Assembly: GCA_013359135.1 (NCBI GenBank)
Contig: JABWCN010000045.1
Span: 1 to 35,738, forward strand
Length of the DNA: 35,738 nt
Source of the DNA: Pseudobdellovibrionaceae bacterium
Lineage (GTDB): Bacteria; Bdellovibrionota; Bdellovibrionia; Bdellovibrionales; Bdellovibrionaceae
Direction of reading: 5' to 3'
The translations under genes and the position numbers were made by a program. The number at the start of each line of letters is the position of its first letter. The first letter of the stretch is position 1. Below the pieces are notes generated by a model that had not been told where the DNA came from, searched no databases, and saw only the letters and a program-made list of their open reading frames with translations. Positions 9,417 through 34,096 of this stretch are shown here, in pieces.

Positions 9417-9444
9417 GTAGCTTTGATTAAAAATGGGGGCATTT

Positions 9445-11735: not shown

Positions 11736-12750
11736 GTTTTCATTGTTGATTGTGGCTTTTATATTTATCTCTACTGTTTCATGCACTAAAGAAGAAGAGA
11801 AACCTAAAGTTAGAGTGGTGGAAAAAGTTGATGATAACAGTGTCAAAATTAATGAAACCAAAAATATCATGATAGAAACTGTAGAAGAAAAAAACTTTGC
11901 AGTTGAGCTTGAGTTTAATGGTCGTATTACAGTTCCTGAGAAAGATATTTCTTCTGTATCGGCTAGAGTCACTGGGAGGATTGAGTCTTTAACTCAGTCT
12001 GTAGGTGATAAAGTGACCAAGGGACAAGTTCTTGGATACCTATGGTCAGCAGATTTGGCATCAGCGGGTGAAGAGTATGAAATTGCAAAAAAAGAGGGTG
12101 GAAGTTTACTATCGCTAACTGAAAAAAAGCTAAGATCACTTGGCGTTGAACCTTCAGAAGTCTCTAATGGTAAAACTATTTTTGCCATTAGATCACCTCT
12201 AACAGGGGTGATTTTAGATAAAAAATTAAATACAGGGTCAACGGTTAATGTTGGAGATATTATTTTAACTGTCGGAAAAATAGGGACTTTACAATTTGTA
12301 GGAGATTTTCCTCCAGAGCAAGCGATCAAGGTAAAAAAAGGAATGAAAGTTGCTTTTGACGATGTTCCTACATTAACTGCTACTATAGAAAATGTTAGTC
12401 CTATATCAGATCCAACAACTCATTTAGTGAAAATTAGAGCTAGTTTTGTAAGTCAACCAGGCCAAGAAATCCCCCAAGAGTCTTTTTTAAAAGCTCATAT
12501 TGTCTTATCAGAACTCCCAGCTTTAGTGTTCCCGATTAAATCAATCATAGCTAAAAGTGATGGAGACTATGCCTTTATTTCAGATGTTGGAGATACTAAA
12601 ATTTTTAAGCGAGTTAAGATTGATATTACATCTAGAAACTCTAAGCAGGTTGCCGTTAATTCAGCTAATTTTCCAAAAAAGTCATTTAAAGTCATTTCTG
12701 ATGGTGCTTTGTTGATCAATGATTCTCTTGAAGAAGGGGAAAAAGACTAA
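11722..12750 (+). CDS. Periplasmic adaptor (membrane fusion protein) of RND efflux system
   Basis: About 342 residues from ATG 11722, which has AAAAAGG nine bases upstream and gives a lipoprotein-like signal peptide ending TVSC. A GTG at 11695 and an ATG at 11713 are in frame but poorly spaced. After the lipid anchor comes the beta-barrel/lipoyl core (VSARVTGRIESLTQSVGDKVTKGQVLGYL), a short helical hairpin (about 30 residues on each side of LLSLTEKKL), the second lipoyl half (IRSPLTGVILDKKLNTGSTV) and the membrane-proximal domain. The short hairpin is as in CusB/CzcB-type proteins. It should bridge the TolC channel and the RND pump. It has no Met- or His-rich metal-binding tail, so the substrate is not indicated. 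The stop and the pump ATG overlap by one base (TAATG). Confidence 0.9.
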   Translation: MLASKFSLLIVAFIFISTVSCTKEEEKPKVRVVEKVDDNSVKINETKNIMIETVEEKNFAVELEFNGRITVPEKDISSVSARVTGRIESLTQSVGDKVTKGQVLGYLWSADLASAGEEYEIAKKEGGSLLSLTEKKLRSLGVEPSEVSNGKTIFAIRSPLTGVILDKKLNTGSTVNVGDIILTVGKIGTLQFVGDFPPEQAIKVKKGMKVAFDDVPTLTATIENVSPISDPTTHLVKIRASFVSQPGQEIPQESFLKAHIVLSELPALVFPIKSIIAKSDGDYAFISDVGDTKIFKRVKIDITSRNSKQVAVNSANFPKKSFKVISDGALLINDSLEEGEKD

Positions 12751-15700
12751 TGTTAGAGTCACTGATTCGTTTTTCTTTGAAACAAAAACTAATAATTTTT
12801 TTAGGTGTTGTGGGCTTAATAGCTGTTGGGATTTGGTCTTTTACGGTTTTGCCGATAGAAGCTTTTCCAGATGTTTTAAATGAATCAGTACAGGTCATTA
12901 CGCAAATGCCTGGTCAGTCAGCTGAAGATATTGAAAAGAAAATTACACTTCCTCTTGAAAGAGAATTTACTGGAATTCCTAAGATTAGGCAATCTAGGAG
13001 TGTTTCTGAATTTGGCCTCTCTGTAGTCTATTTAAGTTTTGAGGATGGAGTTGATAAGTACTGGGCAAGATCTCAAGTTATGGAAAAAGTTTCTACAGCT
13101 TCTTTACCAATAGGTGTTACACCTGATTTAGCTCCTATGGCGGCCGTGACAGGAGAGATTTTACGCTATGAACTTAAAGGTAAACAGTACACCGACAAAG
13201 AGTTAAGAACAACTCAGGATTGGGTTTTAGAGAAACAGTTTCGTTCCATTCCTGGAGTTGCAGATGTCACTAGTTATGGTGGTAGAGTTAAAGCCTGGGA
13301 TGTTCTTGTTGATCCTCTAAAACTCTCTAACTTTGGTATCCCACTAAGACAAGTTTTTGATGTTATTAGTAACTCTAATGTGAATGCTGGAGGTAATCTA
13401 ATAAATTACCCTAACCAATCCTTTGTTATTCGCTCTTTGGGGCAATATCAATCAAAGTCTGATCTTGAGCATGTCGGCATTACGAATCGTGGAGATGCTA
13501 TTTTATCTGTTAAAGAATTAGCGCAAGTCGTGGATTCTAACTTGCCATTACGAGGGGTTGTTGGCAGGGATGACAAAGATAATATTGTTCAAGGAATTGT
13601 TTTGCTTCGAAAAGGTGAAAATCCAGTTGTTGTTGGTCAAGCAGTTACTGACAAAGTGAAAGAATTAAATAATAGCAATTTGTTACCAGAAGGTATGAAT
13701 TTGCAGGTTTATTATAACCGAATGAATTTGGTTAATGTAACGACAAAGACAGTTTGGAAAAACTTATTTGAAGGTCTTGTTTTAGTTTTTGTTATTTTAT
13801 TAATTTTTTTAAGAAATTTGCGAGCGACACTTTTAGTTGCGGCCGTAGTCCCATTAAGTTTATTATTTGCATTTAGTATGATAGTTTTTTTTCATACTCC
13901 CGCTAATCTCATTTCTTTAGGTGCGATTGATTTTGGAATGGTGGTCGATGGTGCTGTTTTGATTGTAGAAATGGTTTTAACGTATTGGCATACACATGCT
14001 CATGTTAAGGATGGAGAAGGTGATTCTGAATCTAAGTTAGAAGAAATAGTTGCGAAAATTGTCAAACCAGTTTTCTACTCAATGATTATGATTATTATTG
14101 CCTATATGCCAATTTTTACCTTAGAGCAGGTTGAAGGTAAGATGTTTAGACCCTTAGCTTGGACTGTTTGTTTTACTTTGGCTGGAGCATTGTTGTTGTC
14201 ATTGTTGTTTATTCCAGCCTGGTTACCTTGGTTGCAAAAGCATAGCATGAAGGCAAGCCAACATGAAGATCCGAAATGGTTAGTCTACTTAAAAACCAAC
14301 TATCAAAGGATTTTGTTGCACTATGATCGCTCACCAGGCTTGTTATTTAAGCATGTGATTTTACTAGTAGTGGTAGGTTTTTTTGCTATTAAAAATACAG
14401 GAACTGAGTTTTTGCCTGAACTAGATGAAGGAGCTTTATGGATTAGAGCTAGTTTTCCACACTCATTGGCTATGGAGGAAGGTAAGAAAGTAGCTCAAAA
14501 GATTAGAAAAATCATTAAGTCTCAAGAAGAGGTTGTAACAGTGATTTCTCAGTTGGGTGGTCCTGAAGATGGAACTGATCCTAATTTATTTGATAACTCA
14601 GAATTTTTTGTCGATCTAAAACCACGAGTTGAATGGAAAAGGTTTTCACATCAAAGAGAGAAATTAATAGATCATCTTCGTGAAGAGTTAGAACATATTC
14701 CAGGAATTGAATTAAGTATTTCTCAACCTATTGCTGATAATGTAGAAGAGGCTGTATCAGGGGTTAAAGGAAAAAATGCTGCCAAAATTTATGGACCAGA
14801 TCTTGAGGTTTTGAAAAAAACTGCCACAGAAATTGGTGAACTGATAAGAAGTGTAAAGGGTACTGTTGAAGTTGGAATTACTTCGTCTACACCTTTAGTT
14901 CCTCATTTAACAGTGAAAGTAGATCGTGTTAAAGTCGCTCAGTCTGGTTTAAATCTACAAGATGTTAATGATCTTGTAGAAATTGCTGTCGGTGGCAAGA
15001 CGGTGACTCAGGTGTATGAGGGAGAGACCAAAATTGATGTCGTCTTAAAAGCTCCGGAAAAGTATCGTAGTACCATGCAAAATATTAAAGACTTACCATT
15101 GACCTTGAGCTCGGGGAAAAGAATTTTATTAAGCCAAGTTGCCGAGGTTAAAATGGAAGATTCACCTCAGGCGATATTCCGTGAAAATGGTTCAAGACGT
15201 ATTGGTGTTAAATTCAATGTCGAAGAGCGTGATTTAGGTTCAGTCATGAAAGATATTTTTGCTAAATTCAAAGATTTTAAAATCCCTACTGGTTATCAGG
15301 TGACTTGGGGTGGTGAATATGAAAATCAACAGCGAGCAATGAAACGACTTTCTTTTGCAGTACCACTGACTGTTCTTATGCTTTCTGTTTTACTGTTTGT
15401 TTTATTGAAAGATGTCAGTTTAGTTGGAGTAGTTCTTTTCAATTTAATTCTGAGTTCTACAGGTGGTGCTATTCTTCTTTTTTTAAGAGGCATTCCATTC
15501 TCCGTTTCAGCAGGTGTTGGTGTATTAGCATTGCTTGGTGTGGTATCGTTAAGTAGCGTAACTTTGACAAGTGAATATGTGACACAAAAAAAAGATATTT
15601 CTGATCCTTGGCAGAATTTACTGAAGGCTTGTGATAATTTATTTAGGCCTATTTTGATGACAGCAATGCTTGCGGCTTTAGCAATTTTACCGGCAGCTAT

Positions 15701-15914
15701 TAGCACTGGAATGGGATCAGAGACCCAAAGACCATTGGCTACGATTGTTATTGGTGGACTGATGACAGCGATTCCTTCAACTTTATTTGTTCTTCCTTTA
15801 CTTATTAAACATTTGGAGCATGGAACCATGAGAGTACTGTTCTTAGATACTCTAAAGGAAATAAAAAACGATCTTTTCTTCTTGAGAAAAATTATTTTTA
15901 AGAAGAAAAAATAA
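12750..15914 (+). CDS. RND efflux pump, heavy-metal (CzcA-like) class
   Basis: 1054 residues: inner-membrane proton-driven trimeric pump with TM1 at about 10-32, a large periplasmic loop, TM2-TM6 (about 335-490), TM7 near 540, a second loop and TM8-TM12 (about 865-1020). The TM4 signature DFGMVVDGAVLIVE carries D394, D400 and E407. These have the same spacing as the three acidic residues essential in Cupriavidus CzcA (D402/D408/E415). This DFGxxxDGA form is typical of divalent-cation pumps (Co/Zn/Cd/Ni) rather than the Cu/Ag CusA type. The usual VEN is VEM here and is followed by a histidine-rich loop (WHTHAH, 413-418). It is the last gene of the operon, with the TolC channel and adaptor directly upstream. 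The exact metal is not certain, and a non-metal substrate is possible. Confidence 0.9.
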   Translation: MLESLIRFSLKQKLIIFLGVVGLIAVGIWSFTVLPIEAFPDVLNESVQVITQMPGQSAEDIEKKITLPLEREFTGIPKIRQSRSVSEFGLSVVYLSFEDGVDKYWARSQVMEKVSTASLPIGVTPDLAPMAAVTGEILRYELKGKQYTDKELRTTQDWVLEKQFRSIPGVADVTSYGGRVKAWDVLVDPLKLSNFGIPLRQVFDVISNSNVNAGGNLINYPNQSFVIRSLGQYQSKSDLEHVGITNRGDAILSVKELAQVVDSNLPLRGVVGRDDKDNIVQGIVLLRKGENPVVVGQAVTDKVKELNNSNLLPEGMNLQVYYNRMNLVNVTTKTVWKNLFEGLVLVFVILLIFLRNLRATLLVAAVVPLSLLFAFSMIVFFHTPANLISLGAIDFGMVVDGAVLIVEMVLTYWHTHAHVKDGEGDSESKLEEIVAKIVKPVFYSMIMIIIAYMPIFTLEQVEGKMFRPLAWTVCFTLAGALLLSLLFIPAWLPWLQKHSMKASQHEDPKWLVYLKTNYQRILLHYDRSPGLLFKHVILLVVVGFFAIKNTGTEFLPELDEGALWIRASFPHSLAMEEGKKVAQKIRKIIKSQEEVVTVISQLGGPEDGTDPNLFDNSEFFVDLKPRVEWKRFSHQREKLIDHLREELEHIPGIELSISQPIADNVEEAVSGVKGKNAAKIYGPDLEVLKKTATEIGELIRSVKGTVEVGITSSTPLVPHLTVKVDRVKVAQSGLNLQDVNDLVEIAVGGKTVTQVYEGETKIDVVLKAPEKYRSTMQNIKDLPLTLSSGKRILLSQVAEVKMEDSPQAIFRENGSRRIGVKFNVEERDLGSVMKDIFAKFKDFKIPTGYQVTWGGEYENQQRAMKRLSFAVPLTVLMLSVLLFVLLKDVSLVGVVLFNLILSSTGGAILLFLRGIPFSVSAGVGVLALLGVVSLSSVTLTSEYVTQKKDISDPWQNLLKACDNLFRPILMTAMLAALAILPAAISTGMGSETQRPLATIVIGGLMTAIPSTLFVLPLLIKHLEHGTMRVLFLDTLKEIKNDLFFLRKIIFKKKK

Positions 15915-15966
15915 TTTTATTCTCGTTGAAATTAAATATATTTTATTCTCGTTGAAATTAAATATA
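15915..15966. repeat. Perfect 26-bp tandem duplication after the RND pump gene
   Basis: Two identical 26-base units at 15915-15940 and 15941-15966, each beginning TTTTATTCTCGTTGAAATTA. They start at the base after the pump's TAA stop, and a third unit is begun (three matching bases). It looks like a simple slippage or duplication event in the 148-base gap between two convergent pump genes. Confidence 0.9.
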
Positions 15967-15996
15967 TTTGAACAATATAAAAATTAAAATAAATAC

Positions 15997-16034
15997 TTAA
16001 ACTAGCTCACTAGGTTTAAAAGAGTAGTTAATTT
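15997..16034 (+). terminator. Possible terminator of the plus-strand RND operon
   Basis: The arms TTAAACTAG (15997-16005) and CTAGGTTTAA (16010-16019) pair with one bulge around a 4-base loop. A run of seven T follows after an 11-base AT-rich spacer. The stem is weak and the spacing long, so this is tentative. Confidence 0.3.
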
Positions 16035-16062
16035 TTTTGTAAGTGCATATTTTTATTTAAAA

Positions 16063-19000
16063 TTAGTGCGTTACTTTTCCTTTCATTTTTTTTTCAAAGA
16101 TAGAAAAAAGTATAGGTAGAATAATCAAAGTTAGTAGTGTTGATGAGACAACTCCGCCAATAACGACTGAAGCAAGAGGCCTTTGCACTTCAGAACCAAC
16201 CCCTGTTGAGAGCATCATAGGAACAAATCCAAAGATAGCAACTAGAGCTGTCATTAGAACAGGTCTCAGTCTAATAAGAGTACCAGAAAGGACCAGTTCT
16301 TTTCCGGTTTTACCTTGAGTTTTTAATTTATTAAAAAAACTTACTAGGACAACACCATTAAGAACTGCTATCCCAGATAGAGCTATGAATCCAACTCCTG
16401 CAGAGATACTAAAAGGTAGTCCATTAAGCATCAATCCAAGTACTCCACCAACTAGAGACATTGGTACACAGGCAAAAATTAATAGTGTTTCTGCAAAACT
16501 TCCAAAGGCGGCATAGACCATCATGAGCACTAATATTAGAGCGAGTGGGCCAAGAATTAGTAAGCGAGATTTAGCTTGTTCCAAGTTTTTAAAATTTCCA
16601 CCCCATTCAAAGTAGTATCCGTCTGGAAGCTGAAGGTTTTCATTAACTTTCCTTTGTGCCTCTAAAACAAATGATTCTGTATCACGGCCTCGCAAGTTAA
16701 TAAGAACAGCCGTTCTTCGATTTGAATTTTCTCTATTAATAGAAGCATAAGTTTCTTTAAATGAAATATTAGCTAGGCTTTCAAGTGGAATAGTTAAGTT
16801 GGTTCCAATCCCTACGGGGAGATTTTTAATCGCAGTTAAATCACTACGCAGCTCATCTTGTAGCCTGATGACAATCGGAAATTTTCTTTCTCCCTCGAAA
16901 ATAACTCCAGCTTCTTCGCCACCAAGAGCGATAGATACTGTATCAAGAACATCTTTGATGGAAGCATTGTAATTAATTAGGTTATCTTCTTTGGGTTCTA
17001 TTTTGAGCACAGGTGAAGTTCCTGCTAGGTCTACTTCAACATCACCAGCTCCTTTGATTTGTGAAACTATTTCCTGGATTGTTTTTGCTATTTCTACAAT
17101 TTTTTTTAGATCTGGTCCAAAAACTTTTATAGATACATCGGCACGCGTGCCTTCTAGTAACTCGTTGAATCTCATCTGAATAGGTTGAGACGCTAAGTAG
17201 GTTTGTCCTGGAAGTTGTTGCTCTAATTTTTCAACAATGAGAGTTGTTAACTCTTGATAAGTTCTTTTTTTGCCATCAATTTTTGACCAGTTATGAGTTG
17301 GCTTTAGCATGATGTAAGTATCAGAAACATTTACACCCATTGGATCTGTAGCGACTTCACTTGTGCCTATTCTAGAAAACACATGATCGACCTCTTGAAA
17401 CCCTTCAATAATTTTATCAGCCTTTTTTTGAAATTCAATTGATTGAGACAGAGAAGCATTCACTGGCCTAATCATGTGAAATGCAAACGAGCCTTCACTA
17501 AGTTGTGGTAAGAATTCAGCACCACGTTTTCCAAATAAAAATATTCCAAGAAGAACTGCTAACATGGCGAGGGTAATAGTTACTTTTTTAAATTTAAAAG
17601 CCAGTTCAAATGCAGGTATATAAATTTGTCTAAAGAAAATCATTAGCCAAGGTTCTTTATCATTTACTTTTCCAGAAAGAAATAGACTTGCAAGTGCTGG
17701 AGCCGTGGTGAATGAAAAAATAAGTGCTGCAAAAACAGCTAGGATAAAGGTAGCAGCCATTGGTGTGAACATTTTTCCTTCGACATTTGTGAGAGCAAAA
17801 ACAGGTATGAAAACCATAATGACAATTAATTCTCCAAATCCAGCAGCGGTTCTAATTTCTAAAGTAGCCTCATAGACTGCTTGTTTAATCTCTTCAGGAG
17901 TTAGATTTCTTTTTAATTCTTTATAGCGCGCTTGTATAAAGCGAACACAGTTATCCAGAACGATGACAGTGCCATCAACAATGATTCCGAAATCTAATGC
18001 TCCTAAGCTCATCAAGTTTCCTGAAAGTCCTAGAGGCTTCATTAGTAAAAAAGTTACAAGTAGAGAGATGGGAATTGTTATGGCTGTGATTAGAGCAGCT
18101 CTGATGTTTCCTAAAAATATGAGTAGAACAATTGTAACCAGCAAGGCACCCATAATTAAATTGTGTTCAACTGTACCAAGGGTTTGATTCACTAGATCAG
18201 AGCGGTTGTATACGGTTTGAAGTTCGATATTTTCTGGTAACGTTTTTTTTATTTCACTTATTTTGTCATGAATACGCATTGAAACTGTCCTTGAATTCTC
18301 ACCAAGAAGCATCATTACAGTTCCAAGAACGACTTCATTACCATCGAAAGTAGCAGCTCCTGTTCTTAGTTCTTTTCCTAATTCAATTTTAGCAATATCG
18401 CCAATTTTAATAGTTTTAAATGACTCAAGCTGTTTGACGGGAATTCTAGCAATTTCTTTTGGAGATGTTAAAAGTCCTATTCCTTGAATTAAAAATTGCT
18501 CGGCTGTTTGTTCAACATAACCTCCACCTACATTGCGATTACCTTTTTCTAGGGCTTCTTTGATCTCTTCAAAGTGAATTCCAAAAGATGCCATTTTCTG
18601 AGGATCTGGTTGAACATGGTATTGCTTCTCAAAACCTCCAGAGGTATTAATTTCGGCCACTCCCTCTATAGTTAACAACCTAGGTTTTAGGTACCAATCT
18701 TGTAGAGCTTTGATTTCCATGAGCTGTTCGGTACGAGCTTGACCTGTTTTTTTTATTTTGAAATCTAAAATGTACTGATAGATTTCGCCAAGTCCTGTTG
18801 AGATAGGGCCAAGTTGAGGGCTAGCACCTCGTGGAAGCTCATTAGAAATACCTTGTAGTTTTTCGGTTACAAGTTGTCTAGCACGATAAATATCTACAGA
18901 GTCTTTAAATACTACAGTGATTTGGGACAGCCCGAAACGCGTTATCGACCTGACTTGATCGACACCAGGAACTCCTCGTATGGTAGCTTCAATAGGAAAT

Positions 19001-19197
19001 GTCACTGTTCGTTCTATTTCCTCTGGAGCTAGTCCATCGATTACAGTATTTACTTGAACTTGATTATTAGTGATATCAGGTACGGCATCAATCGGCAGAT
19101 GTTGAAAACTATAAACTCCTGCAATTATTAGAAGTGAGGTCAAAAAAAGAATAAATCCTCGATTGTATACTGAAAAATGAATGATTCGATTTGTCAT
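16063..19197 (-). CDS. RND efflux pump, CzcA-like heavy-metal class
   Basis: 1044 residues, the standard CzcA length. TM1 is at 15-32, followed by the conserved start LPIDAVPDITNNQVQV (34-49), periplasmic loops and 12 predicted TM helices. The TM4 motif DFGIIVDGTVIVLDN places D402 and D408 exactly where CzcA has them, but the third acidic residue, Glu in CzcA, is aspartate here (D415). It should export divalent cations from periplasm or cytoplasm using the proton gradient. It is the last gene of a minus-strand operon with TolC (CzcC-like) and a mini-adaptor. GGAG lies 8 bases before the ATG, and a strong GC hairpin in the preceding coding end may modulate its translation. It converges on the other pump gene and shares only moderate similarity with it, so the two are not recent duplicates. 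Confidence 0.92.
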   Translation of the reverse strand: MTNRIIHFSVYNRGFILFLTSLLIIAGVYSFQHLPIDAVPDITNNQVQVNTVIDGLAPEEIERTVTFPIEATIRGVPGVDQVRSITRFGLSQITVVFKDSVDIYRARQLVTEKLQGISNELPRGASPQLGPISTGLGEIYQYILDFKIKKTGQARTEQLMEIKALQDWYLKPRLLTIEGVAEINTSGGFEKQYHVQPDPQKMASFGIHFEEIKEALEKGNRNVGGGYVEQTAEQFLIQGIGLLTSPKEIARIPVKQLESFKTIKIGDIAKIELGKELRTGAATFDGNEVVLGTVMMLLGENSRTVSMRIHDKISEIKKTLPENIELQTVYNRSDLVNQTLGTVEHNLIMGALLVTIVLLIFLGNIRAALITAITIPISLLVTFLLMKPLGLSGNLMSLGALDFGIIVDGTVIVLDNCVRFIQARYKELKRNLTPEEIKQAVYEATLEIRTAAGFGELIVIMVFIPVFALTNVEGKMFTPMAATFILAVFAALIFSFTTAPALASLFLSGKVNDKEPWLMIFFRQIYIPAFELAFKFKKVTITLAMLAVLLGIFLFGKRGAEFLPQLSEGSFAFHMIRPVNASLSQSIEFQKKADKIIEGFQEVDHVFSRIGTSEVATDPMGVNVSDTYIMLKPTHNWSKIDGKKRTYQELTTLIVEKLEQQLPGQTYLASQPIQMRFNELLEGTRADVSIKVFGPDLKKIVEIAKTIQEIVSQIKGAGDVEVDLAGTSPVLKIEPKEDNLINYNASIKDVLDTVSIALGGEEAGVIFEGERKFPIVIRLQDELRSDLTAIKNLPVGIGTNLTIPLESLANISFKETYASINRENSNRRTAVLINLRGRDTESFVLEAQRKVNENLQLPDGYYFEWGGNFKNLEQAKSRLLILGPLALILVLMMVYAAFGSFAETLLIFACVPMSLVGGVLGLMLNGLPFSISAGVGFIALSGIAVLNGVVLVSFFNKLKTQGKTGKELVLSGTLIRLRPVLMTALVAIFGFVPMMLSTGVGSEVQRPLASVVIGGVVSSTLLTLIILPILFSIFEKKMKGKVTH

Positions 19198-19215
19198 AAA
19201 ATTAACTCCAATGGG

Positions 19216-19680
19216 TTAGTGAGAGTGGCCTTCGGGAGCTCCCCCGAAGGCAGTAATTTCTGCAATTCTTAAAAATCCAAGTCCGGTGAGTGCTACTTCG
19301 TCTCCTAATTGTAATTCATCCGAATTGATAATTATTTTATCCTTATTTTTTTTGATGATTTGAAAATCTACTCTTTTAAAATAACTATTGCGGATACGGA
19401 AAATATTTTGCTCAGTACCTGTACTTAGTATAGCGGTTTTAGGAATATTCACAGAGTGATTTATACTTACTTTCATTTTTTCAATCTCAAAGTTTTTTTC
19501 TGCAGAGGGTGATAGTTGAAAACCTAAAGTGTCATCAGCAGATAAAATTCCTTTGTTGGGACCTACTTGAGAATTTTCATTACTATGATTTGTTTGATGA
19601 TCGTGATCATCTGGCTCGGAAGTAGCGAGAGTTTTTAAAACCAGAAGTAAAAGACAAGAAATAAGAATTTTATATCTCAT
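19216..19680 (-). CDS. Mini periplasmic adaptor (CzcB C-terminal-like), His-rich
   Basis: 154 residues with a signal peptide (about 1-19). A histidine/acid-rich stretch (DDHDHQTNH, about 24-32) follows, then a beta-rich body (QLSPSAEKNFEIEKMKVS; NIPKTAILSTGTEQNIFRIRN) like the membrane-proximal domain of CzcB-type adaptors. The end is GDEVALTGLGFLRIAEITAF plus GHSH. Standard adaptors are 350-500 residues; this one has no lipoyl domain and no helical hairpin. It overlaps the upstream TolC gene by 4 bases (ATGA) with AGGAG as ribosome-binding site, and sits directly before the pump gene, exactly the czcB position. The two His clusters suggest metal binding. It could be a reduced adaptor or a metal-loading chaperone. 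The ORF is intact, with no sign of decay. Confidence 0.75.
   Translation of the reverse strand: MRYKILISCLLLLVLKTLATSEPDDHDHQTNHSNENSQVGPNKGILSADDTLGFQLSPSAEKNFEIEKMKVSINHSVNIPKTAILSTGTEQNIFRIRNSYFKRVDFQIIKKNKDKIIINSDELQLGDEVALTGLGFLRIAEITAFGGAPEGHSH
19228..19251 (-). promoter_or_regulatory. Strong GC-rich hairpin at the mini-adaptor/czcA junction
   Basis: GCCTTCGGG (19228-19236) and CCCGAAGGC (19243-19251) form a perfect 9-bp stem with a 6-base loop, seven of nine pairs G-C, in an otherwise AT-rich region. It lies in the last codons of the mini-adaptor, 31 bases before the czcA start. There is no T-run, so a role in mRNA stability or in setting adaptor:pump ratio fits better than termination. 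Confidence 0.5.
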
Positions 19681-20909
19681 AAAATCTCCTCTTGAAATTG
19701 GTTGTCAATAGTGAGGATTTTTCCAAGAGCTTCAATGGCTTCTAGTTCAGCAGTGTTTCTACGTCCCTCTAGATCTATTAATTGTCTATGAGCTTCAATA
19801 ACTAGGGCGCTAGAAACAAGTCCTTTAAAGAATTGCTTTTCAATTTGGGAGTGATTTTCATTAATAGTATTAAGACTTAATGTCCCTTTTAACGCTTGAA
19901 CTGTTTTATAATATTTATGAACAAGTTGATTTCTAGTTGAGGATTCAGTGTTTTTTACTTGTTCTAAAGCTAAACTAGCAGATACTTTTTTTTGTTCGAA
20001 AAAACTTATATGTCCTGAATTGCGATTAAATACAGGAAGAGAAATATTAAAACTGATTCCTATATAAGTGTCTGTCGCAGAACTTTCTTTAGTTGATCTT
20101 AAAGTAGGTCCTAGTTTAAGATCAGGCCAGGCTTCAGCTCGAGCTTTAACTGCTAGACTTTCCGCGATCTCTACTTCAGCTAGAGCTTTTCTAGTGGATG
20201 GAGATAAGTCATGGTCAGTTTTATTTTCTTTAATTTCTGGCCAGGTGAGTTTTCTGGTGGGAAGATTTTTTTCTATAAGTTCACGTTTCACTTGTGAAAT
20301 GGCATTAAGTGATTGGTAAAGTTTCTCTTCAAAAGATTTTATAGATGTTAATTTTAGCTGATGATCTGCAAGCGCCATTTTAAAAACAGCTAGAGAAACA
20401 TTTTGTTCCGGTGTTAAAACTGGTCTTTTTTCAAATTGTGAAATGATTTTAGCAAAAGTTTCTGTAGATTCCTTTTCAATTAAAATTTCATTTTGAATTT
20501 GTGATAAACGGTAAAGTGTCAAAATTATTTCTAAGCGGGTTTGTTGAGAAACTTCATCTCGCTCGGCTGTAGATTTTTTTATTTCACCTTGAGCTGCAGT
20601 AATATTAGCACTACGTTTATTGCCAAGTGGTAAAGTGAACAAAAGAGTCGCTGAGGTTTCTGACGTCGTCGATCCTTTTGAAAATGACTCTGCCTCTAAC
20701 TCAGGGTTAATTAACTTATGGGCTATATGTTCTAAATGCTTTGTTGCTAGCAAATTTTGTTCAACTATCTTAATAGGTGAAGCTGCTTTTTCAAGACATT
20801 TTACTAGCTCTTGGTAGCTTTTTATAGGACATTCTGTGTTGGCTGCCTGGGCATTATTATAATTTATGAAAAGCCAGAAAGCTAACAAGTGATATAAAAA
20901 AGAACTCAT
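19677..20909 (-). CDS. TolC-family outer-membrane channel (CzcC-like)
   Basis: 410 residues with a signal peptide (about 1-22, ending AQA). The body has the CzcC hallmarks: LINPELEAESFSKGS near 66-80, a strand pair LLFTLPLGNKRSANITAAQGE (about 88-110), then WPDLKLGPTLRSTKES and FNISLPVFNRNSGHI in the second half, where the channel's second barrel strands lie. It should be the outer-membrane duct of the CBA pump encoded downstream. It overlaps the mini-adaptor by 4 bases and is separated from the upstream His/Cys-rich peptide gene by 115 bases. An early cysteine pair (CPIKSYQELVKCLEKA) follows the signal peptide. Confidence 0.9.
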   Translation of the reverse strand: MSSFLYHLLAFWLFINYNNAQAANTECPIKSYQELVKCLEKAASPIKIVEQNLLATKHLEHIAHKLINPELEAESFSKGSTTSETSATLLFTLPLGNKRSANITAAQGEIKKSTAERDEVSQQTRLEIILTLYRLSQIQNEILIEKESTETFAKIISQFEKRPVLTPEQNVSLAVFKMALADHQLKLTSIKSFEEKLYQSLNAISQVKRELIEKNLPTRKLTWPEIKENKTDHDLSPSTRKALAEVEIAESLAVKARAEAWPDLKLGPTLRSTKESSATDTYIGISFNISLPVFNRNSGHISFFEQKKVSASLALEQVKNTESSTRNQLVHKYYKTVQALKGTLSLNTINENHSQIEKQFFKGLVSSALVIEAHRQLIDLEGRRNTAELEAIEALGKILTIDNQFQEEIL

Positions 20910-23392: not shown

Positions 23393-23817
23393 TAATCCTT
23401 CTTTATTTTTTCGATAAGCCAGTAAATCAAGACTATCAAGCGAAACGTCCAGATGATTGTGCGTGGCCAGTTTCTGGACACAAGATTATTTTTTGATAAT
23501 AAGTTTTGATATAATAATTTTTTGTGAGTTGGAACGTTAACTAAAGCTGTTAAAAACCAAAGAGCTAAAATGAAAATAAAGTTCCATAAAAAAAATAAGT
23601 TTTGAGACTTTAATAAAAGCCAAGTTCCTGTTACTAATTCAAGGATCATCATAGGTCCAACAATCCAACTTATACGATTTATATGAAAATGATGAAATTT
23701 TTCAAATTCAGCATTTCCAACATTTTTAAAATTTGGATAGATTAAAATTTGAACTAGCCAGATCACTCCGGTCATAAAACTACAGCAAAAAATATGCATT
23801 ACTAAGATAATATTCAT
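23392..23817 (-). CDS. Four-TM membrane protein in the photolyase operon
   Basis: 141 residues with four predicted TM helices (about 3-24, 48-70, 73-94 and 116-135). The first loop has FEKFHHFHINRISW, a His-rich stretch at the end of a short extramembrane segment. Size and layout resemble the small DUF1772-like integral membrane proteins, but I cannot assign a family securely. It overlaps the photolyase by 4 bases and the DUF2805 gene by one, so all three should be co-translated. Clustered His residues next to a TM helix could bind haem or metal, but this is only a possibility. Confidence 0.65.
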   Translation of the reverse strand: MNIILVMHIFCCSFMTGVIWLVQILIYPNFKNVGNAEFEKFHHFHINRISWIVGPMMILELVTGTWLLLKSQNLFFLWNFIFILALWFLTALVNVPTHKKLLYQNLLSKNNLVSRNWPRTIIWTFRLIVLIYWLIEKIKKD

Positions 23818-25376
23818 AAAGAAACCACTAACTTTTGGCGCAGATTTGTAGCTGCACTACTTAAAACTTCCCATCTTTGCTTTGAAATTTTTTGACTGGA
23901 TTTTACCATCATTGAAAGGCGAGGGTTTTTAAGAAAGAAGTTTTCATGTTTTTTAATGAATTCCCAGTACAATCCATCTACACCATCGCACCAATCCTCT
24001 TTTTTATAGCCCCCCATTTTTCGTAAGTAATTTGATCCACAGATATATGGTTTTGTTGCAAAGACACCTCCATCAGAGAAAAGAGCCATTCCATAAACAT
24101 TTGGTCCCATAACCCAGTCTGAAGAGTCTACAAACATTTCCATAAACCAGCGGTGAGCTTCACTAGGATGTACTTCTAGGAGTAACATTAAGCTTCCTAT
24201 AATCATTAGTCTTTCTATATGATGGGCATAGCCGCGTTTTATTACTCGCCGAAGAGTTTCATCTAAGGGAGGAATCCCAGTATCACCCTTATACCAAAGA
24301 GGACTAAGTTTATTGTTATGATTCCAAAAATTGGTTGTTTCCTGCTTTTGACTGAAATTCTGATATATTCCACGAATAAACTCACGCCAACCGATAACTT
24401 GTCTAATGAATCCTTCCAGTGAAGCCAAAGGAATTTTATTTTTTAATCCAAACGCAAGAGTTTCTTTTACCACCTCATCAGGTGTGAGAAGCCCAGAGTT
24501 TAAAAACGGAGTTAATACAGAATGAAATACAAATTCGGAATGAGGCGGAATGGCATCTTCATAGGGACCGAATTTTTCTAGTCTATCTTTCAAAAATGTA
24601 TGGAACCATTGTCTTGCTGTTTTTCTGTCAGTCGGCAACCAGTAATCTAAAGAGTTTCCTGGGTGAAGTGAAAATTCTTGATCTACTAGTTTTGAGACTT
24701 CTTTAATACCTTTTGTTAATTCTAATTTTGGCAAAGTTGGTGTTTTTATATTTTTAGGAAGAGCCATGCGATTTTCATTATCAAAGCTCCAGGCTCCACC
24801 AACAGGTTTATTTCCTTCGATTAGTATTTCGTGTTTTCTTCGTTGATATTCATAGAAGGTTTTCATAAATGGGCGATGTGTTGACTGTAGATAAACTTGA
24901 AATTCACTACGTGATGTCAAAAACATTGGACTTTGCCAAATTGATAGGGAAATTTTTTTGTTTTTAAAAAAATTAATAATGCGACCTTCAAAAAATTTGT
25001 CTTCTATTTCAAACCCAAATACCGAATTTATTTTAAACTTGTTAATAATTCTTTCAAGAGAGCTCTCATAGTTATTGAATTTTAATTCTTCACTTGCTCC
25101 ATGAAGAGTTTCGTAGTGAACATTGTAGCCATAACTTATTAGCTCATCACGATAAGATCTCATGGCAGCAAAAAAGAAAATGATTTTGTGCTTATGAAAC
25201 TTGAAGTAAGATGCCAGCTCTTTATCTTCTTTCATAAAAAAGATAGAATTTTTAGGGTCAACTTTATATTGTTTAAAAATTTTAGGGTTAAATAATTGAT
25301 TTCCTAAAACCAAAATTAGATTAAAATTCTGAGTATTTTTAAGTTGAGTTTTTTGTTTAATATTAGTATTGTTCAT
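23814..25376 (-). CDS. Cryptochrome/photolyase of the bacterial Fe-S (PhrB-like) family lacking the cluster cysteines
   Basis: 520 residues. An N-terminal Rossmann-like antenna domain (LILVLGNQLF, about 20-29; through ~150) is followed by an all-helical FAD-binding domain (about 240-490). Family motifs include LNSGLLTPDEVV, GFIRQVIGWREFIRG, RGYAHHIERLMIIG, EMFVDSSDWVMGPNVYGMAL and GVFATKPY. Relatives such as Agrobacterium PhrB repair (6-4) photoproducts and hold a 4Fe-4S cluster on four Cys. Here the whole protein has only two Cys, C446 (KPYICGSN) and C463 (EDWCDG), and the CxxC pair is replaced by KKEDWC, so a four-Cys cluster cannot form. The protein starts inside a perfect inverted repeat. 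It could be a DNA repair enzyme or a blue-light receptor; sequence alone does not settle which. Confidence 0.9.
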   Translation of the reverse strand: MNNTNIKQKTQLKNTQNFNLILVLGNQLFNPKIFKQYKVDPKNSIFFMKEDKELASYFKFHKHKIIFFFAAMRSYRDELISYGYNVHYETLHGASEELKFNNYESSLERIINKFKINSVFGFEIEDKFFEGRIINFFKNKKISLSIWQSPMFLTSRSEFQVYLQSTHRPFMKTFYEYQRRKHEILIEGNKPVGGAWSFDNENRMALPKNIKTPTLPKLELTKGIKEVSKLVDQEFSLHPGNSLDYWLPTDRKTARQWFHTFLKDRLEKFGPYEDAIPPHSEFVFHSVLTPFLNSGLLTPDEVVKETLAFGLKNKIPLASLEGFIRQVIGWREFIRGIYQNFSQKQETTNFWNHNNKLSPLWYKGDTGIPPLDETLRRVIKRGYAHHIERLMIIGSLMLLLEVHPSEAHRWFMEMFVDSSDWVMGPNVYGMALFSDGGVFATKPYICGSNYLRKMGGYKKEDWCDGVDGLYWEFIKKHENFFLKNPRLSMMVKSSQKISKQRWEVLSSAATNLRQKLVVSL

Positions 25377-25811: not shown

Positions 25812-27818
25812 ATGAAAATGACATTAAAGCAAAAAATGATAGGGCTCACAGCTTTTAGCTCTTTGGGGCTATTAATAATTGGTTTACTTGGAGTCAACAC
25901 TTCAAATCACCTTCTTGTTGATTTAGATGACGTGATTTTTAAGTCAATCCCAATAATAAGAAATCTAACTCTCATCGATATGGTTCACGAGGGGGTAAGA
26001 GGAGCTACATTAGAAAGCTATAAAGGACATTTACTAAAGGATTCTGTTTCTATAAATAGTTCAGCTAAAATTTTGGCCCAACTTAAAGAGACTATTGAGA
26101 AAGATTTTAAGGATATTGAAGATAAACTTGACAATGAAAACGACAAAAAAAACTTTAAACATGCAAAAATTTTAATGATGGAATATATTGTCACTTCTGA
26201 AGAGTTTAATATTTTATGTAGAAGTGAAAAAACAGAAGATTTAGCAAAAGTTTGGAAAAAATTTGATTTGCAATTTGAAAAACTTGAAAAAGTTTTGGGC
26301 GATTTGGGTGATTCTACAGAGAAAAAAATTCAAGCTAATTTTTTGGCAAAAATTGAAAGTGGAAAAACAGCAAGCCAGCGTAATATTTTTTTTGGTATAT
26401 TTTTCATTTTATTTTCTTTTGGGATGTCCCTTATTTCAGTTACTAAAATTTCCAATATATTCAATAATATAACAAGTGAGGTTGGTAGTGCTTCAAGTAA
26501 TGTAGGTATACAGCTTAACGTAGTTTCTACAAGTACTCAAGATGTAGTAAGCTCTGTTCAAACACAAGCATATGCCCTTGAACAGACAAGTACTGTGGTT
26601 GAGGAAATTTCTACTATGGTTGCAAAGACTTCCGAAAGAGTTGAAAATGTTGAAAAAACCACAATTGAGTCAAAAGTATTGGCAAATGAGGGGCGAAAAG
26701 TTTTAGAAAAGCTAGTCGAATCGATTAAATTTTTGAAAGATTCAAATGATAATTCAGCACGAGAACTCTACGACAGTAATGAAAAAATAAGTTCTATTGT
26801 AAATATCATAAAGAATGTAGCGGAAAAAACTAGGGTGATTAATGAAATTGTATTTCAAACAAAACTACTTTCATTCAATGCTTCGGTAGAAGCTGCTCGA
26901 GCTGGAGAAAACGGCAAAGGCTTTGCTGTTGTAGCAGAAGAAGTCGGCAATTTAGCACAAATGTCAGGAAGTGCGGCTCAAGAAATTAACTTATTGCTTG
27001 ATTCCTGTATAACTCAAGTTAGTTCAACAGTGAATGAAAGCAAAAGTAGAGTAGAAAAAATGATTCACTCATCAACGCTTTTGTTAGATACAAGTATTAA
27101 AACAGCAGAAGAAAGTAAGTCTTCACTTGAAAAAATATTTTATATGTCAGATTCAGTTTCTAAAATGATTCAAGATATTACTACGAGTAGTAAAGAGTCA
27201 GCTAACGGAGTTACTGAAATTACAAAGTCAATACATCAGATAGATTCAACAAGTAAAATTACCTTGAAAGCTGTTGATGAAACAAAAAAATCAATAAATT
27301 TATTAAACAAAGAGGTTGATTTGTTAAGAACTATTGCATCTGAATTAAATCTTACAGTTCAGGCTAAACCTTGGATAAATCTATTTCAATGGCAAGATAA
27401 TTACTATCTTCATGTGGACTCAATGGATGATGAGCATATAGTTCTTGTTGAAAAGATAAACTCCTTGGCTGAAAATCTTGGTAATAATAATTTCGACAAA
27501 ATACTACATTCTTTTACGGAGTTAGCAAGCTATACGGCCATTCACTTTGAAAACGAAGAAAAATACATGCGTTCTATTAGATACCCCGATTTAGAAATTC
27601 ATCACAACATACATGCAAAACTATTGAAGCAGGTCGGAGAATATGCTGAAAAGTTAAAATCCAAGCAACTTGATAGTTCTGAGCTTATGACTTTTCTTAA
27701 TGATTGGTTGTTAAAGCATATTCTTGGTGTTGATATGAAATATGCAAGATACAGTCGAGGAGAAAGAGATTCAAGTGTGATTTCACTCAAGTCAAAAGCT
27801 CCTCCTGTGAGTGCATAA
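25812..27818 (+). CDS. Methyl-accepting chemotaxis protein with C-terminal bacteriohemerythrin
   Basis: 668 residues. TM1 is at about 10-29, a helical periplasmic sensor domain (four-helix-bundle type) at about 30-187, and TM2 at about 190-212. There is no obvious HAMP. A cytoplasmic signalling hairpin follows, whose tip (about 343-375) reads [19 protein letters not shown], where CheA/CheW dock. The last ~125 residues are a hemerythrin domain with all seven di-iron ligands at canonical spacing: H542, H578, E582, H597, H601, H636 and D641. This layout is known from DcrH-like receptors that bind O2 at a non-haem di-iron site, so it probably steers cells in response to oxygen or redox state. It stands alone, with no che genes nearby. 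The C-terminal tail after ~648 is short and polar. Confidence 0.95.
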
Positions 27819-27862: not shown

Positions 27863-29635
27863 TTATTGCTGAGACCAGGAGTCTTTAATAGTTTCAAATC
27901 TAATGTCGATTCCATTAGCTGCTGAAGGGCCATAGGAGCGAAAATTCGAAAAAATAAGATAAGAGTTGCTTACTGCATTTCTATAATCCTTCCATGAGAC
28001 TGGTCCAACCAATTTTTTATAAGCAGAAAGTGCGATCCAGTCTATTTCTGCGTGACTTTGATTATAAAGGCGCGAATATTCTTCCGGTTTTATGCCACTA
28101 ATTAACTTTTCATAGGTCTTAGTCATAGGTGTGGTTGCATCCATAGAAATGCCACCATTTATTGAGGTGAAATTTTTATCTATGTTAACAAGATGCCACT
28201 CATAAATGTAATGAGAAAGTTCGTGAATCAAGACAAATTTGATAAGAAGTTTTTTTTCATTATCACTATGAATTTGATCGTAAATTTCATCTAAGATTTC
28301 TTTTGAAAATAAGATGTATCCATGTTCATTTGGTCCATCTGAAAAACTTTTATTCAAAATAATTTTAATGGTTTTTTGTTTAGAGAGGAAAAAAGGAAAT
28401 AAAACATTACCAAATATTTTTCTTTGAAATTCATTGCTAAAGTTTTGAATCCAAAAGTACTTTTTCGGTAATTTTACTTCATTTTTCGAAATTTCGAAAG
28501 GTTGTTTTCGACCCATTACCTCAAGAGGATTACCATTTTTTACAGCCAATAAGAGCTTGTCTAGAGCTTTCTTTCCTGAAGCTTTGCTAAACACTTTATA
28601 GCTCCCTGATACTCGTCTGTCGTAATCCTTGAACCAGGGTAGAATACAGCCACTAAGTGTGACATTGAAAATGCCTTTTGAATCAAAACATTTATAAAGA
28701 CTTCTCAGATCTTGAGCATAGTTAAATTGTTCAACTGTTTTTTTTCCTTGGAAAAGTTCACAAGGTGTATTTGCATTACAGAGATTATTAGTATTTTCGC
28801 TGTCAGGTGAAGTATTATGAATAGCAAAAAGCTCCCAAATTTTTTGTTCATTGTTATAACTAATAAGAGGTCCACCAGACGAGCCATGCTGACTATTGCA
28901 GGTATGGCGAAAGGATCTTGGATAAATAAAATTTGCTTCCATCAAGTTGACTTGATCACCAAGCTTGCAGGATGAGACTCTGCCAACTCGTGTTTCAATT
29001 GCATTAGCATTGTCATTGATTGTTGGAAAGCTTGGAAGGTAAAAAATTTTTCCAGACAAATCAGGTGTTAAATCAATATTTGATATCTTTATGGGCTCTA
29101 ATCCTAAAGATTTTATCTCAGTATCTATTTTTTCTAGCTCTAAGATAGCGATATCGGTTAAATACATTGTTAAATAGATTATTTTAGAAACTTTTAGTCT
29201 AGTTTTTTTTTGTGCTAAATCTAAATCATTAAACTCTACAAAATAATTTTGATCTGGAGTTATATTAGTCCGAGCTGTCTGAGGGTAAAATGGTAAGCCA
29301 AAGCAGTGACCGTTGGTTACTCCATAAATTGGAGCTCTATCTTTTGGCTCAATTCTGACCTGTGCTAAAAATACGGTGCATCCGATCGGGAAAAGTTTGC
29401 CAATAGATTTAAACTCATTAGGAACAGAAAGTTTCTTGTCAGTTATTTCCGGCCAGCTACTGGATAATTCTGGATCAAAATTTGAATAAGCAGATTGTTT
29501 TTTTGCGAAATATTCTTCAACTGAAAAGTAGTTTTTATTATTTATTGTCACGATTGCCTTAGCGAAAGGTAGATCAACTATGAAAGTATAAAGAATTCCA
29601 ACAATTACCTGTAGTACCATCCTGAGAATTGTCAT
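27863..29635 (-). CDS. Secreted dual protease: trypsin-like domain plus HExxH metallopeptidase-like domain
   Basis: 590 residues with a signal peptide (about 1-27; M6 is an alternative start). The N-terminal part is a chymotrypsin-fold serine protease: H110 in VTNGHCFG, D161 in LTDIAILEL and S253 in GSSGGPL (usual GDSGGPL, with Asp replaced by Ser252). Several Cys probably form disulfides (C111, C223, C246). The C-terminal part (about 390-590) holds HELSH at 471-475 (zinc ligands H471/H475, base E472) and HAEIDWIA at 528-535, whose E530 could be the third ligand, as in gluzincins. I know no named family with both. It faces the chemoreceptor gene convergently, 44 bases away. It is probably exported to periplasm or medium; substrate unknown. 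Confidence 0.8.
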   Translation of the reverse strand: MTILRMVLQVIVGILYTFIVDLPFAKAIVTINNKNYFSVEEYFAKKQSAYSNFDPELSSSWPEITDKKLSVPNEFKSIGKLFPIGCTVFLAQVRIEPKDRAPIYGVTNGHCFGLPFYPQTARTNITPDQNYFVEFNDLDLAQKKTRLKVSKIIYLTMYLTDIAILELEKIDTEIKSLGLEPIKISNIDLTPDLSGKIFYLPSFPTINDNANAIETRVGRVSSCKLGDQVNLMEANFIYPRSFRHTCNSQHGSSGGPLISYNNEQKIWELFAIHNTSPDSENTNNLCNANTPCELFQGKKTVEQFNYAQDLRSLYKCFDSKGIFNVTLSGCILPWFKDYDRRVSGSYKVFSKASGKKALDKLLLAVKNGNPLEVMGRKQPFEISKNEVKLPKKYFWIQNFSNEFQRKIFGNVLFPFFLSKQKTIKIILNKSFSDGPNEHGYILFSKEILDEIYDQIHSDNEKKLLIKFVLIHELSHYIYEWHLVNIDKNFTSINGGISMDATTPMTKTYEKLISGIKPEEYSRLYNQSHAEIDWIALSAYKKLVGPVSWKDYRNAVSNSYLIFSNFRSYGPSAANGIDIRFETIKDSWSQQ

Positions 29636-30052
29636 CGCTTTTTATCCTTTCTTAATCGTTCATATTTTTTTATTACAAGAATTATGCCCTTATTATGTCG
29701 TTGAACTTACCAAGGGGCTTCTTAAAATTACAATTATTGTTATCTAATCAAGAGTTAGTAGACATATCAAATTAAGACAGAAAGTTGGACTGATACAAAT
29801 TAGATTGATTTTTTTATGAATCAAATAATTTGTTAGTAGTTGTAAGTTGTAATACTGAAATTTTAGTTGATAGCTCAGGTCTTGTCAGGCCTTGATTGTG
29901 GCGTTCTTTTATTCCAAAGCGCTTTGAATTTTTTATAAAAATAAGTAAATTTCTTTTTATATTAAAGAATTCATTGAATAGTTGCCGTTAAATGCTTATA
30001 AATCGGAGAAATATTTTTTAGAATAATAAATAGCTTATTGAAAGGTAATTTT
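29636..30052. other. 417-base intergenic region, possible small RNA
   Basis: No ORF with coding character. At 29915-29926 there is a 12-bp palindrome CAAAGCGCTTTG, followed by AATTTTTTAT, which resembles a plus-strand terminator. No plus-strand gene precedes it, so it could end an unannotated small RNA starting somewhere after 29700. The segment at about 29875-29910 is less AT-rich than its surroundings. The promoter of the dual protease (minus) must lie near 29640-29720. Confidence 0.3.
29915..29935 (+). terminator. Terminator-like palindrome plus T-run
   Basis: CAAAGCGCTTTG followed by AATTTTTTA. The stem is short (4-5 bp once a loop is allowed), so termination would be weak. Its orientation fits transcription on the plus strand across 29700-29930. 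Confidence 0.3.
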
Positions 30053-33031: not shown

Positions 33032-34096
33032 CTAGCGCCTGTAGCTTGGCTTTTCCAGCGGTTTCGGTTGAGGATTTAGCAAAACCCAGGAAACTGCGCT
33101 TTTGGCAAGAAGGTAGGCATCACCTGCTTCACGCCTGTTAAGCGATACTATAATGGCCTCGCAATCCTGAAGCTGCTCAAAAGGCAAGGCAGTGCCACTC
33201 CTCACTATATCGAGAAATGCCTTCGACATTTTCCTAAAATCGGCGTCCCAATTGGCTCCACCATTGCGGCTGATTTCGTCAGTAATGCGTCCTGAGATCC
33301 GGATCACCTCACCTTGCATAGTCGCTGCCGGTCCAGTACCTGGCACTAGCTGTCGCCAGAGCTCTTGATGTTGTTCAGTCCAGACTATAGCTTTGACGTG
33401 AATTGGCTTTTTTCCATCATGAATTTGTCGACGTGGGACGGGTGGGACATCGAAAAGGCTGTAGAGTTCATCAAGTGAAGAGCTGGAGACATCAACAGTC
33501 TCTGGATTAAATTTATCTCGAATGAACTCGAATCTTTCGCCGATTTGGGTAACAAATTGCTTGGCTGTCGGTGTTTTTTCGGCCCCTGTATTTAGAAGTA
33601 CCCTTGCCAATGGCGCCATCCGCTCAATGTCAGACGAACTACATCCCTGTAATGCGACCTCTAGCGGACTAAGGTCTGAGCGATTCTTCCCATTAACATG
33701 GGCACCATGAGCTATGAGTAATGCTGCATTAGGAGCATTCTTGGAGTCAGCCGCCGCGTGCAGTGGAGATCCGATCGAGGCGCTGGCATTAACATCAGCA
33801 CCCAGCTCGATCAAAAGTTGCACGGACGGCTGTGTGGGACCTCGCCAATATCGGGCTATGTGATGCAAAGGAGTGTTACCGTATTGATCGGTCACGTTCA
33901 GGTCAGCGCCATTTTTTACTAACCAGCGAGTCAATTCGTCAGGACATTCGGAAAAACTCAGCGCTGTTGATTTGAAAACGCCCCCGCGTGCATTGACATC
34001 GCATTCCTCAAACACAGCTTTAAGTGCTTCAATGTCACCGAACTTCAATAACTCTTTGAAATTTTTAGGAAGTGACTTTTTCTTGGCTTTTGACAT
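33032..34096 (-). CDS. Ankyrin-repeat protein of high G+C, likely acquired
   Basis: 354 residues, no signal peptide. Ankyrin repeats span about 20-175: WLVKNGADLNVTDQYGNTPLHHIA, then LLIELGADVN...GSPLHAAA, LLIAHGAHVNGKNRSDLSPLEVAL and a degenerate LLNTGAEKTP. The C-terminal ~120 residues form a separate conserved-looking domain (MQGEVIRISGRITDEISRNG; GANWDADF; AVSWVLLNPQP). I recall it from uncharacterised proteins in many bacteria but know of no function. Two sampled 60-base lines have 57% G+C and one 40%, against about 30% in the flanks, and codon use shifts to GC-ending codons: strong signs of horizontal transfer. It stands alone. A role as immunity or interaction protein is possible but unsupported. 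Confidence 0.85.
   Translation of the reverse strand: MSKAKKKSLPKNFKELLKFGDIEALKAVFEECDVNARGGVFKSTALSFSECPDELTRWLVKNGADLNVTDQYGNTPLHHIARYWRGPTQPSVQLLIELGADVNASASIGSPLHAAADSKNAPNAALLIAHGAHVNGKNRSDLSPLEVALQGCSSSDIERMAPLARVLLNTGAEKTPTAKQFVTQIGERFEFIRDKFNPETVDVSSSSLDELYSLFDVPPVPRRQIHDGKKPIHVKAIVWTEQHQELWRQLVPGTGPAATMQGEVIRISGRITDEISRNGGANWDADFRKMSKAFLDIVRSGTALPFEQLQDCEAIIVSLNRREAGDAYLLAKSAVSWVLLNPQPKPLEKPSYRR

What the first reader, a model, noticed from the sequence alone, without database searches (positions are those of the whole stretch)
27863..29635. Secreted fusion of a trypsin-like protease and an HExxH metallopeptidase-like domain
Seen: H110/D161/S253 triad and, 218 residues on, HELSH at 471-475 with HAEID at 528-532. 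Two catalytic classes in one exported chain is rare. The metal domain might cut a different substrate or act as a self-processing or pro-domain. For a predatory bacterium this is a plausible prey-degrading or surface-processing enzyme. GSSGGPL replaces GDSGGPL, so the Ser-preceding Asp is lost.
Basis: partly seen in the sequence, partly recalled or inferred. Interest (0 to 1): 0.6.

Follow-up and report, generated by a model that had tools for sequence, protein, structure and literature searches.

The report
Exported serine-plus-zinc double protease
A Bdellovibrio-type bacterium encodes one exported protein that joins a trypsin-like serine protease to an unnamed kind of zinc-peptidase-like domain, two protein-cutting chemistries in one chain, a pairing not found in any relative examined.

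Summary
In detail: one intact 590-aa minus-strand ORF (27863-29635) carries H110/D161/S253 and HELSH 471-475 / HAEID 528-532, all numbered correctly. Residues 76-333 are a trypsin-fold (S1, Trypsin_2) domain; 30 related S1 genes were found in the order and none has the Asp of GDSGG, so nothing was "lost" in this protein. Residues 334-590 match no named family, but are a domain also found as stand-alone exported proteins scattered through Bdellovibrionota. Profile alignment to M48 peptidases (96.6-96.9% probability) puts H528, not E530, on the third zinc-ligand position. A predicted model matches gluzincin metallopeptidases best (BepA Z 8.7). So the C-domain is probably a zinc peptidase with a three-histidine site. 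The S1-zinc fusion was not found elsewhere in 141 genomes of the order or 369 of the phylum. Best reading: an exported enzyme with two catalytic classes, made by adding a metallopeptidase domain to the end of an S1 protease. Activity, zinc geometry and any predation role are untested. New variant of a known kind; moderate interest.

The parts
27863..29635 (-). Whole gene, 590-aa S1 protease / metallopeptidase-like fusion
   Evidence: Single open frame, ATG start, no internal stop
29645..29650 (-). Likely ribosome-binding site AAAGGA
   Evidence: Sequence upstream of ATG
29555..29635 (-). Signal-peptide-like segment, residues 1-27 (cleavage after A25-K-A27 inferred)
   Evidence: Sequence pattern; predicted helix 2-29. 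No signal-peptide predictor was available
29411..29554 (-). N-terminal segment, residues 28-75, possibly a short pro-segment or linker (inferred)
   Evidence: Low model confidence 29-69
28637..29410 (-). S1 (trypsin-fold) protease domain, residues 76-333
   Evidence: Pfam Trypsin_2 28.8 bits vs cut-off 27.6; 30 relatives; S1 structures Z up to 18.6
29306..29308 (-). Catalytic His110
   Evidence: Invariant in A4
29153..29155 (-). Catalytic Asp161
   Evidence: Invariant in A4
28877..28879 (-). Catalytic Ser253 in GSSGGP
   Evidence: Invariant in A4
27866..28636 (-). C-terminal gluzincin-like domain, residues 334-590
   Evidence: Stand-alone homologues; profile match to M48; model m7c81c2096df4
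28211..28225 (-). HELSH, residues 471-475: proposed zinc ligands H471, H475 and general base E472
   Evidence: H, E, H invariant in 15 members
28040..28054 (-). HAEID, residues 528-532: proposed third zinc ligand H528 and supporting D532
   Evidence: H invariant, D in 14 of 15; H528 aligned with ligand Glu of M48 ExxAD

Best explanation
An exported bifunctional endopeptidase. Shown by sequence and model: a trypsin-fold S1 domain with an intact triad and eight conserved cysteines, followed directly at about residue 334, where most stand-alone S1 relatives end, by a domain that exists elsewhere as a separate exported protein and is related to gluzincin-fold metallopeptidases (M48, selecase). Inferred mechanism: the Sec signal is removed; the S1 domain cuts peptide bonds by the Ser/His/Asp mechanism and, like HtrA- and V8-type enzymes, does not use the Ile16-Asp194 activation of trypsin. 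The C-domain holds one zinc through H471, H475 and H528, with E472 activating the zinc-bound water and D532 steadying the site as the Asp of ExxxD does in M48. Tethering lets the two chemistries act on the same protein substrates outside the cytoplasm. Digestion of prey or environmental protein is the most likely use, but this last step is a guess from the lineage.
For: Pfam Trypsin_2 above its cut-off, 32 of 141 genomes of the order (this one included) with the S1 domain, triad and cysteines invariant, S1 structures at Z 17.6-18.6. C-domain: ten-member alignment with only F, HExxH and HxxxD columns fixed; 15 members with H, E, H, H invariant and D in 14; hhalign to M48 96.9%, 1.8e-10 and 96.6%, 5.8e-10 with another M48 set, against 0.1% for an S1 control; profile hit to selecase MJ1213 at 4.7e-5; model pTM 0.79, with the top 30 structural rows all metallopeptidases, BepA Z 8.7, rmsd 3.8, 164 residues. 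Junction: 26 of 29 S1 relatives end within about 12 residues of the C-x-L that closes the domain here. Stand-alone C-domain homologues have signal-peptide- or lipoprotein-like starts.
Against: No activity data. The model of the C-domain is of middling confidence (pLDDT 75) and Foldseek itself gave no significant match, so the fold rests on the second-look aligner and on profiles; Z 7-9 can be a common arrangement. Zinc distances could not be measured. Against a large HtpX-dominated M48 set the match fell to 75.6% and covered only the HExxH half. No stand-alone C-domain gene has an S1 gene within about 5 kb, so there is no independent sign that the two work together. The gene is absent from the five congeneric genomes, so conservation of the fusion itself cannot be shown.
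Confidence: 0.55

Rival explanations
1. Only the S1 half is a working protease; the C-domain is a zinc-dependent binding, inhibitory or maturation module that may be clipped off after folding.
For: Three S1 relatives (L002, L003, L065) carry a different 146-194-aa C-terminal extension at the same junction, so this spot accepts accessory domains. L029 is a C-domain relative that has lost HExxH and the H of HxExD, so the fold can outlive catalysis.
Against: In this protein and 14 relatives all four core residues H, E, H, H are kept, which pure binding would not need, E472 above all.
Confidence: 0.22
2. A standard Glu-zincin C-domain with ligands H471, H475, E530.
For: E530 is present in 13 of 15 members and gluzincins by definition use Glu.
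Against: E530 is D in L031 and L in L030, while H528 is never replaced; the M48 ligand Glu aligns with H528 and the M48 Asp with D532.
Confidence: 0.12
3. The C-domain uses its HExxH site for something other than peptide cutting, such as an iron-dependent oxygenase.
For: An HExxH-fold oxygenase (ChlB HExxH domain, 8s5f) appears at rank 31, Z 4.3; a three-His site could bind iron.
Against: Thirty metallopeptidase entries rank above it, up to Z 8.7; profiles match M48 and selecase. Fusion to a protease and export point to proteolysis.
Confidence: 0.06
4. The fusion is an assembly artefact joining two genes.
For: The genome is a 94-contig draft and no other genome holds the fusion.
Against: The frame is continuous with even base composition on both sides (GC 0.339 and 0.325). 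The C part starts where mature stand-alone C-domains start, without a leftover signal peptide, so a chance in-frame join at both domain edges is unlikely.
Confidence: 0.04

Closest known systems
S1 peptidases of the Trypsin_2 (PF13365) type, including HtrA/Deg and the many exported single-domain trypsin-like proteins of Bdellovibrio
   Same: Trypsin fold, His/Asp/Ser triad, no Asp before the Ser (GTSGSP, GSSGS), exported, cysteine-rich
   Different: Extra C-terminal metallopeptidase-like domain. PMC2605481 reports 24 trypsin-like proteins in B. bacteriovorus, all but one single-domain, and no metallopeptidase partner among the S1 architectures of 91 genomes
Peptidase family M48 (BepA, HtpX, Ste24)
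   Same: HExxH on one helix, a second helix with xxxD further on, similar predicted topology, hhalign 96.6-96.9%
   Different: M48 has Glu as third ligand (ExxAD); here the same position is His (HxxxD). No Pfam M48 match over cut-off. No membrane helices, no TPR
Minigluzincins / selecase (MJ1213, jannalysin, abylysin)
   Same: Best sequence-profile match among solved structures (4.7e-5); PMC6925264 states that minigluzincins use a third histidine, so a three-His site on this scaffold has a precedent
   Different: Selecase is about 110 aa; this domain is 257 aa, exported and found in Bdellovibrionota
WLM / Wss1 metalloproteases
   Same: HExxH plus a third His as zinc ligand (Wss1 His115, His119, His125; PMC5557861)
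   Different: There the third His follows within six residues on a loop; here it is 53 residues on, in a predicted helix with an Asp four residues later

Membership tests
S1 / Trypsin_2 peptidase (N-terminal domain) | Profile match above the curated cut-off | tested here: met
   PF13365 28.8 bits vs 27.6, residues 106-261; marginal but backed by 30 relatives
S1 / Trypsin_2 peptidase (N-terminal domain) | His/Asp/Ser triad in order, conserved | tested here: met
   H110, D161, S253 invariant
S1 / Trypsin_2 peptidase (N-terminal domain) | Trypsin fold | tested here: met
   Model residues 61-335, Z up to 18.6; Foldseek E down to 5.9e-8
S1 / Trypsin_2 peptidase (N-terminal domain) | Oxyanion-hole geometry and activity | not testable with these tools
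   Coordinates not returned; no assay
Peptidase M48 | Pfam PF01435 above cut-off | tested here: not met
   No match for P0001; 5 of 15 members match weakly, best E 0.0015
Peptidase M48 | HExxH plus Glu ligand in ExxAD | tested here: not met
   HExxH present, but H528 stands at the Glu position
Peptidase M48 | Gluzincin fold | tested here: inconclusive
   BepA Z 8.7, rmsd 3.8 over 164 residues, but no significant Foldseek match and a middling model
Minigluzincin / selecase | HExxH plus third His zinc ligand on a gluzincin scaffold | tested here: inconclusive
   H528 invariant; selecase matched by profile in the HExxH half only, Z 7.0, rmsd 3.1 over 106 residues; geometry not seen
Minigluzincin / selecase | Minimal size, about 110 residues | tested here: not met
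   Domain is about 257 residues
HExxH metallopeptidases (clan MA) in general | HExxH with downstream third ligand, bound zinc and catalytic activity | tested here: inconclusive
   Motif and downstream candidate ligand conserved; metal binding and activity not tested

The most novel reading that the evidence does not exclude
The C-domain founds a new clan-MA peptidase family, seen so far only in Bdellovibrionota, with an M48-like layout but a fixed HExxH...HxxxD three-histidine zinc site; and this protein is a true dual-class exported protease in which the serine and zinc halves act together or process each other.
Probability: 0.3. Interest if true: 0.6.

Novelty: new variant of a known kind. 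Interest (0 to 1): 0.4.

Why it matters
Bdellovibrio and its relatives carry large protease sets that are mostly single-domain. A chain with two catalytic classes would be a compact digestive tool and a possible reagent, and the stand-alone relatives define an unnamed metallopeptidase-like family whose third ligand is probably His where M48 has Glu, useful for testing how gluzincin zinc sites evolve.

Tried and rejected
Phages: no match; plasmids: only the S1 domain in three Streptomyces records, 28% identity. Aligning single-domain S1 and single-domain C homologues with the full protein in one MAFFT run put the C homologues on the S1 half, so the halves were modelled with separate alignments; the C half of the full-length model is unusable. 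Foldseek gave no significant match for the C-domain. A large M48 set dominated by HtpX, with long loops between the motifs, aligned only over HExxH. Gene neighbourhoods of 14 C-domain loci show no S1 partner, and ten neighbours tested show no shared theme. The S1 tree places this protein on a long, unreliable branch. The query had its first two residues mistyped (ES for RR), without effect on the matches. Bd2269, a prey-exit protease of B. bacteriovorus, was considered as a functional model but is annotated as a subtilase (PMC12546842), not S1. Weak hits that belong to other families or look like chance (L018, L019, L047, L048, L051-L056) were set aside. Other phyla were not searched for the fusion.

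Full report
What is there. The coordinates hold one intact minus-strand ORF of 590 codons, a single copy in its 3.84-Mb genome. The other strand is closed by stops. The start has an AAAGGA ribosome-binding-like site and a signal-peptide-like N-terminus; the eight cysteines all lie in the first domain. The gene runs tail to tail with an MCP-hemerythrin gene and has no evident operon partner.

N-terminal domain. Residues 76-333 are a trypsin-fold S1 protease. Pfam Trypsin_2 is just over its cut-off. 32 of 141 genomes of the order, this one included, hold the domain, with H110, D161, S253 and seven cysteines invariant in a 15-row alignment. The predicted model of this part is good (pLDDT mostly 75-95) and matches S1 structures at Z 17.6-18.6. 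The 30 relatives have GTSGSP-, GSSGS- or GASGS-type motifs, so the missing Asp194 is a trait of the subfamily, as in HtrA- and V8-type enzymes (established knowledge), and not a loss in this protein.

Junction. 26 of 29 S1 relatives end within about 12 residues of the C-x-L motif that here ends at residue 332. Three carry another C-terminal extension of 146-194 residues at the same point. Here a different domain begins.

C-terminal domain. Residues 334-590 match no Pfam or NCBIfam model, and no PDB sequence convincingly. Searching the order, class and phylum gave stand-alone homologues: L014, L015, L016, L017 first, then L025-L028 and L031, then more distant ones such as L043, L044, L050, L058. 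They are about 210-330 residues long, many with signal-peptide or lipoprotein starts. The named records behind two of them are Bdellovibrionales and Bdellovibrionota bacteria, which places the lineage. Across ten members H471, E472, H475, H528 and D532 are invariant; across 15, H, E, H, H are invariant and D is in 14. E530 is D or L in two members.

Which zinc ligands. Profile comparison with M48 peptidases of the same phylum gave 96.9% and 96.6% with a larger mixed set, against 0.1% for S1 as a control. In these alignments SHAEIDWIALSAYKKL lies on QELAADLYALRILKKK or HESEADIIGLELMAKA, so H528 sits on the first Glu of ExxAD, the M48 zinc ligand (established knowledge), and D532 on its Asp. The likely ligands are therefore H471, H475 and H528, not E530. 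Three-histidine sites have precedents: minigluzincins are described as using a third histidine (PMC6925264), and Wss1 does so with another spacing (PMC5557861). The best solved-structure profile match is the minigluzincin selecase.

Fold. A C-domain model from 15 sequences has pLDDT 75 and pTM 0.79, with HExxH on helix 125-151 and H528/D532 on helix 184-210 of the model. Foldseek found nothing significant. The second-look aligner placed metallopeptidases in all of the first 30 rows, BepA first (Z 8.7, rmsd 3.8, 164 residues), selecase at Z 7.0, rmsd 3.1 over 106 residues. This supports a gluzincin fold but is not proof; Z values of 7-9 can be a common arrangement, and the coordinates could not be inspected.

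Distribution of the fusion. None of the 30 S1 relatives contains HExxH in the same frame, and none of 14 other C-domain loci has an S1 gene within about 5 kb. In the held genomes of the order (141) and phylum (369), only this genome has the fusion. The five other genomes of the genus lack the gene. A survey of 247 prokaryotic S1 proteins lists their multi-domain architectures, none with a metallopeptidase, and notes that all but one of 24 B. [quoted passage not shown] Other phyla were not searched, so rarity is shown only for this phylum.

Mechanism. Shown: two domains, conserved catalytic residues in both, likely export. Inferred: zinc binding by three histidines, two proteolytic activities, shared substrates. 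Guessed: use in digesting prey or environmental protein. A non-catalytic or self-processed C-domain remains a real alternative; one relative, L029, has lost the motif while keeping the profile match.

Verdict. A sound observation with a correct core reading, corrected in the zinc ligand and in the meaning of GSSGG. It is a new variant of known kinds rather than a new kind of system.

Noticed in passing
L012:1501-1728 (G042:C94:8522-8749): A remnant of about 50 residues next to a folA-like gene matches the extreme C-terminus of this protein (VSWHEYKEVVGKCYL...IRFETLKDSW) without any HExxH left; it looks like a decayed copy.
   Followed up: partly
L029:34-1629 (G097:C223): A 532-aa frame with a degenerate relative of the C-domain: HExxH lost, HxExD changed to RAEVD, and an extra N-terminal part; a likely pseudoenzyme and a second fusion of this domain.
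   Followed up: partly
window 25812-27818 (+): Chemotaxis receptor with a C-terminal bacteriohemerythrin domain (MCPsignal plus Hemerythrin), convergent with the protease gene; possibly oxygen sensing.
   Followed up: no
window 33032-34096 (-): Ankyrin-repeat protein of 354 aa.
   Followed up: no
window 23814-25376 (-): Cryptochrome/photolyase-related protein (DPRP plus FAD_binding_7), next to a small UPF0093-like protein.
   Followed up: no
window 9433-20909: Two RND efflux systems (AcrB-type pumps at 12750-15914 + and 16063-19197 -) with outer membrane efflux proteins, side by side on opposite strands.
   Followed up: no
window 1857-5987 (+): 1376-aa protein ending in a Peptidase_S74 intramolecular chaperone domain, of the kind found on phage tail spikes.
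   Followed up: no
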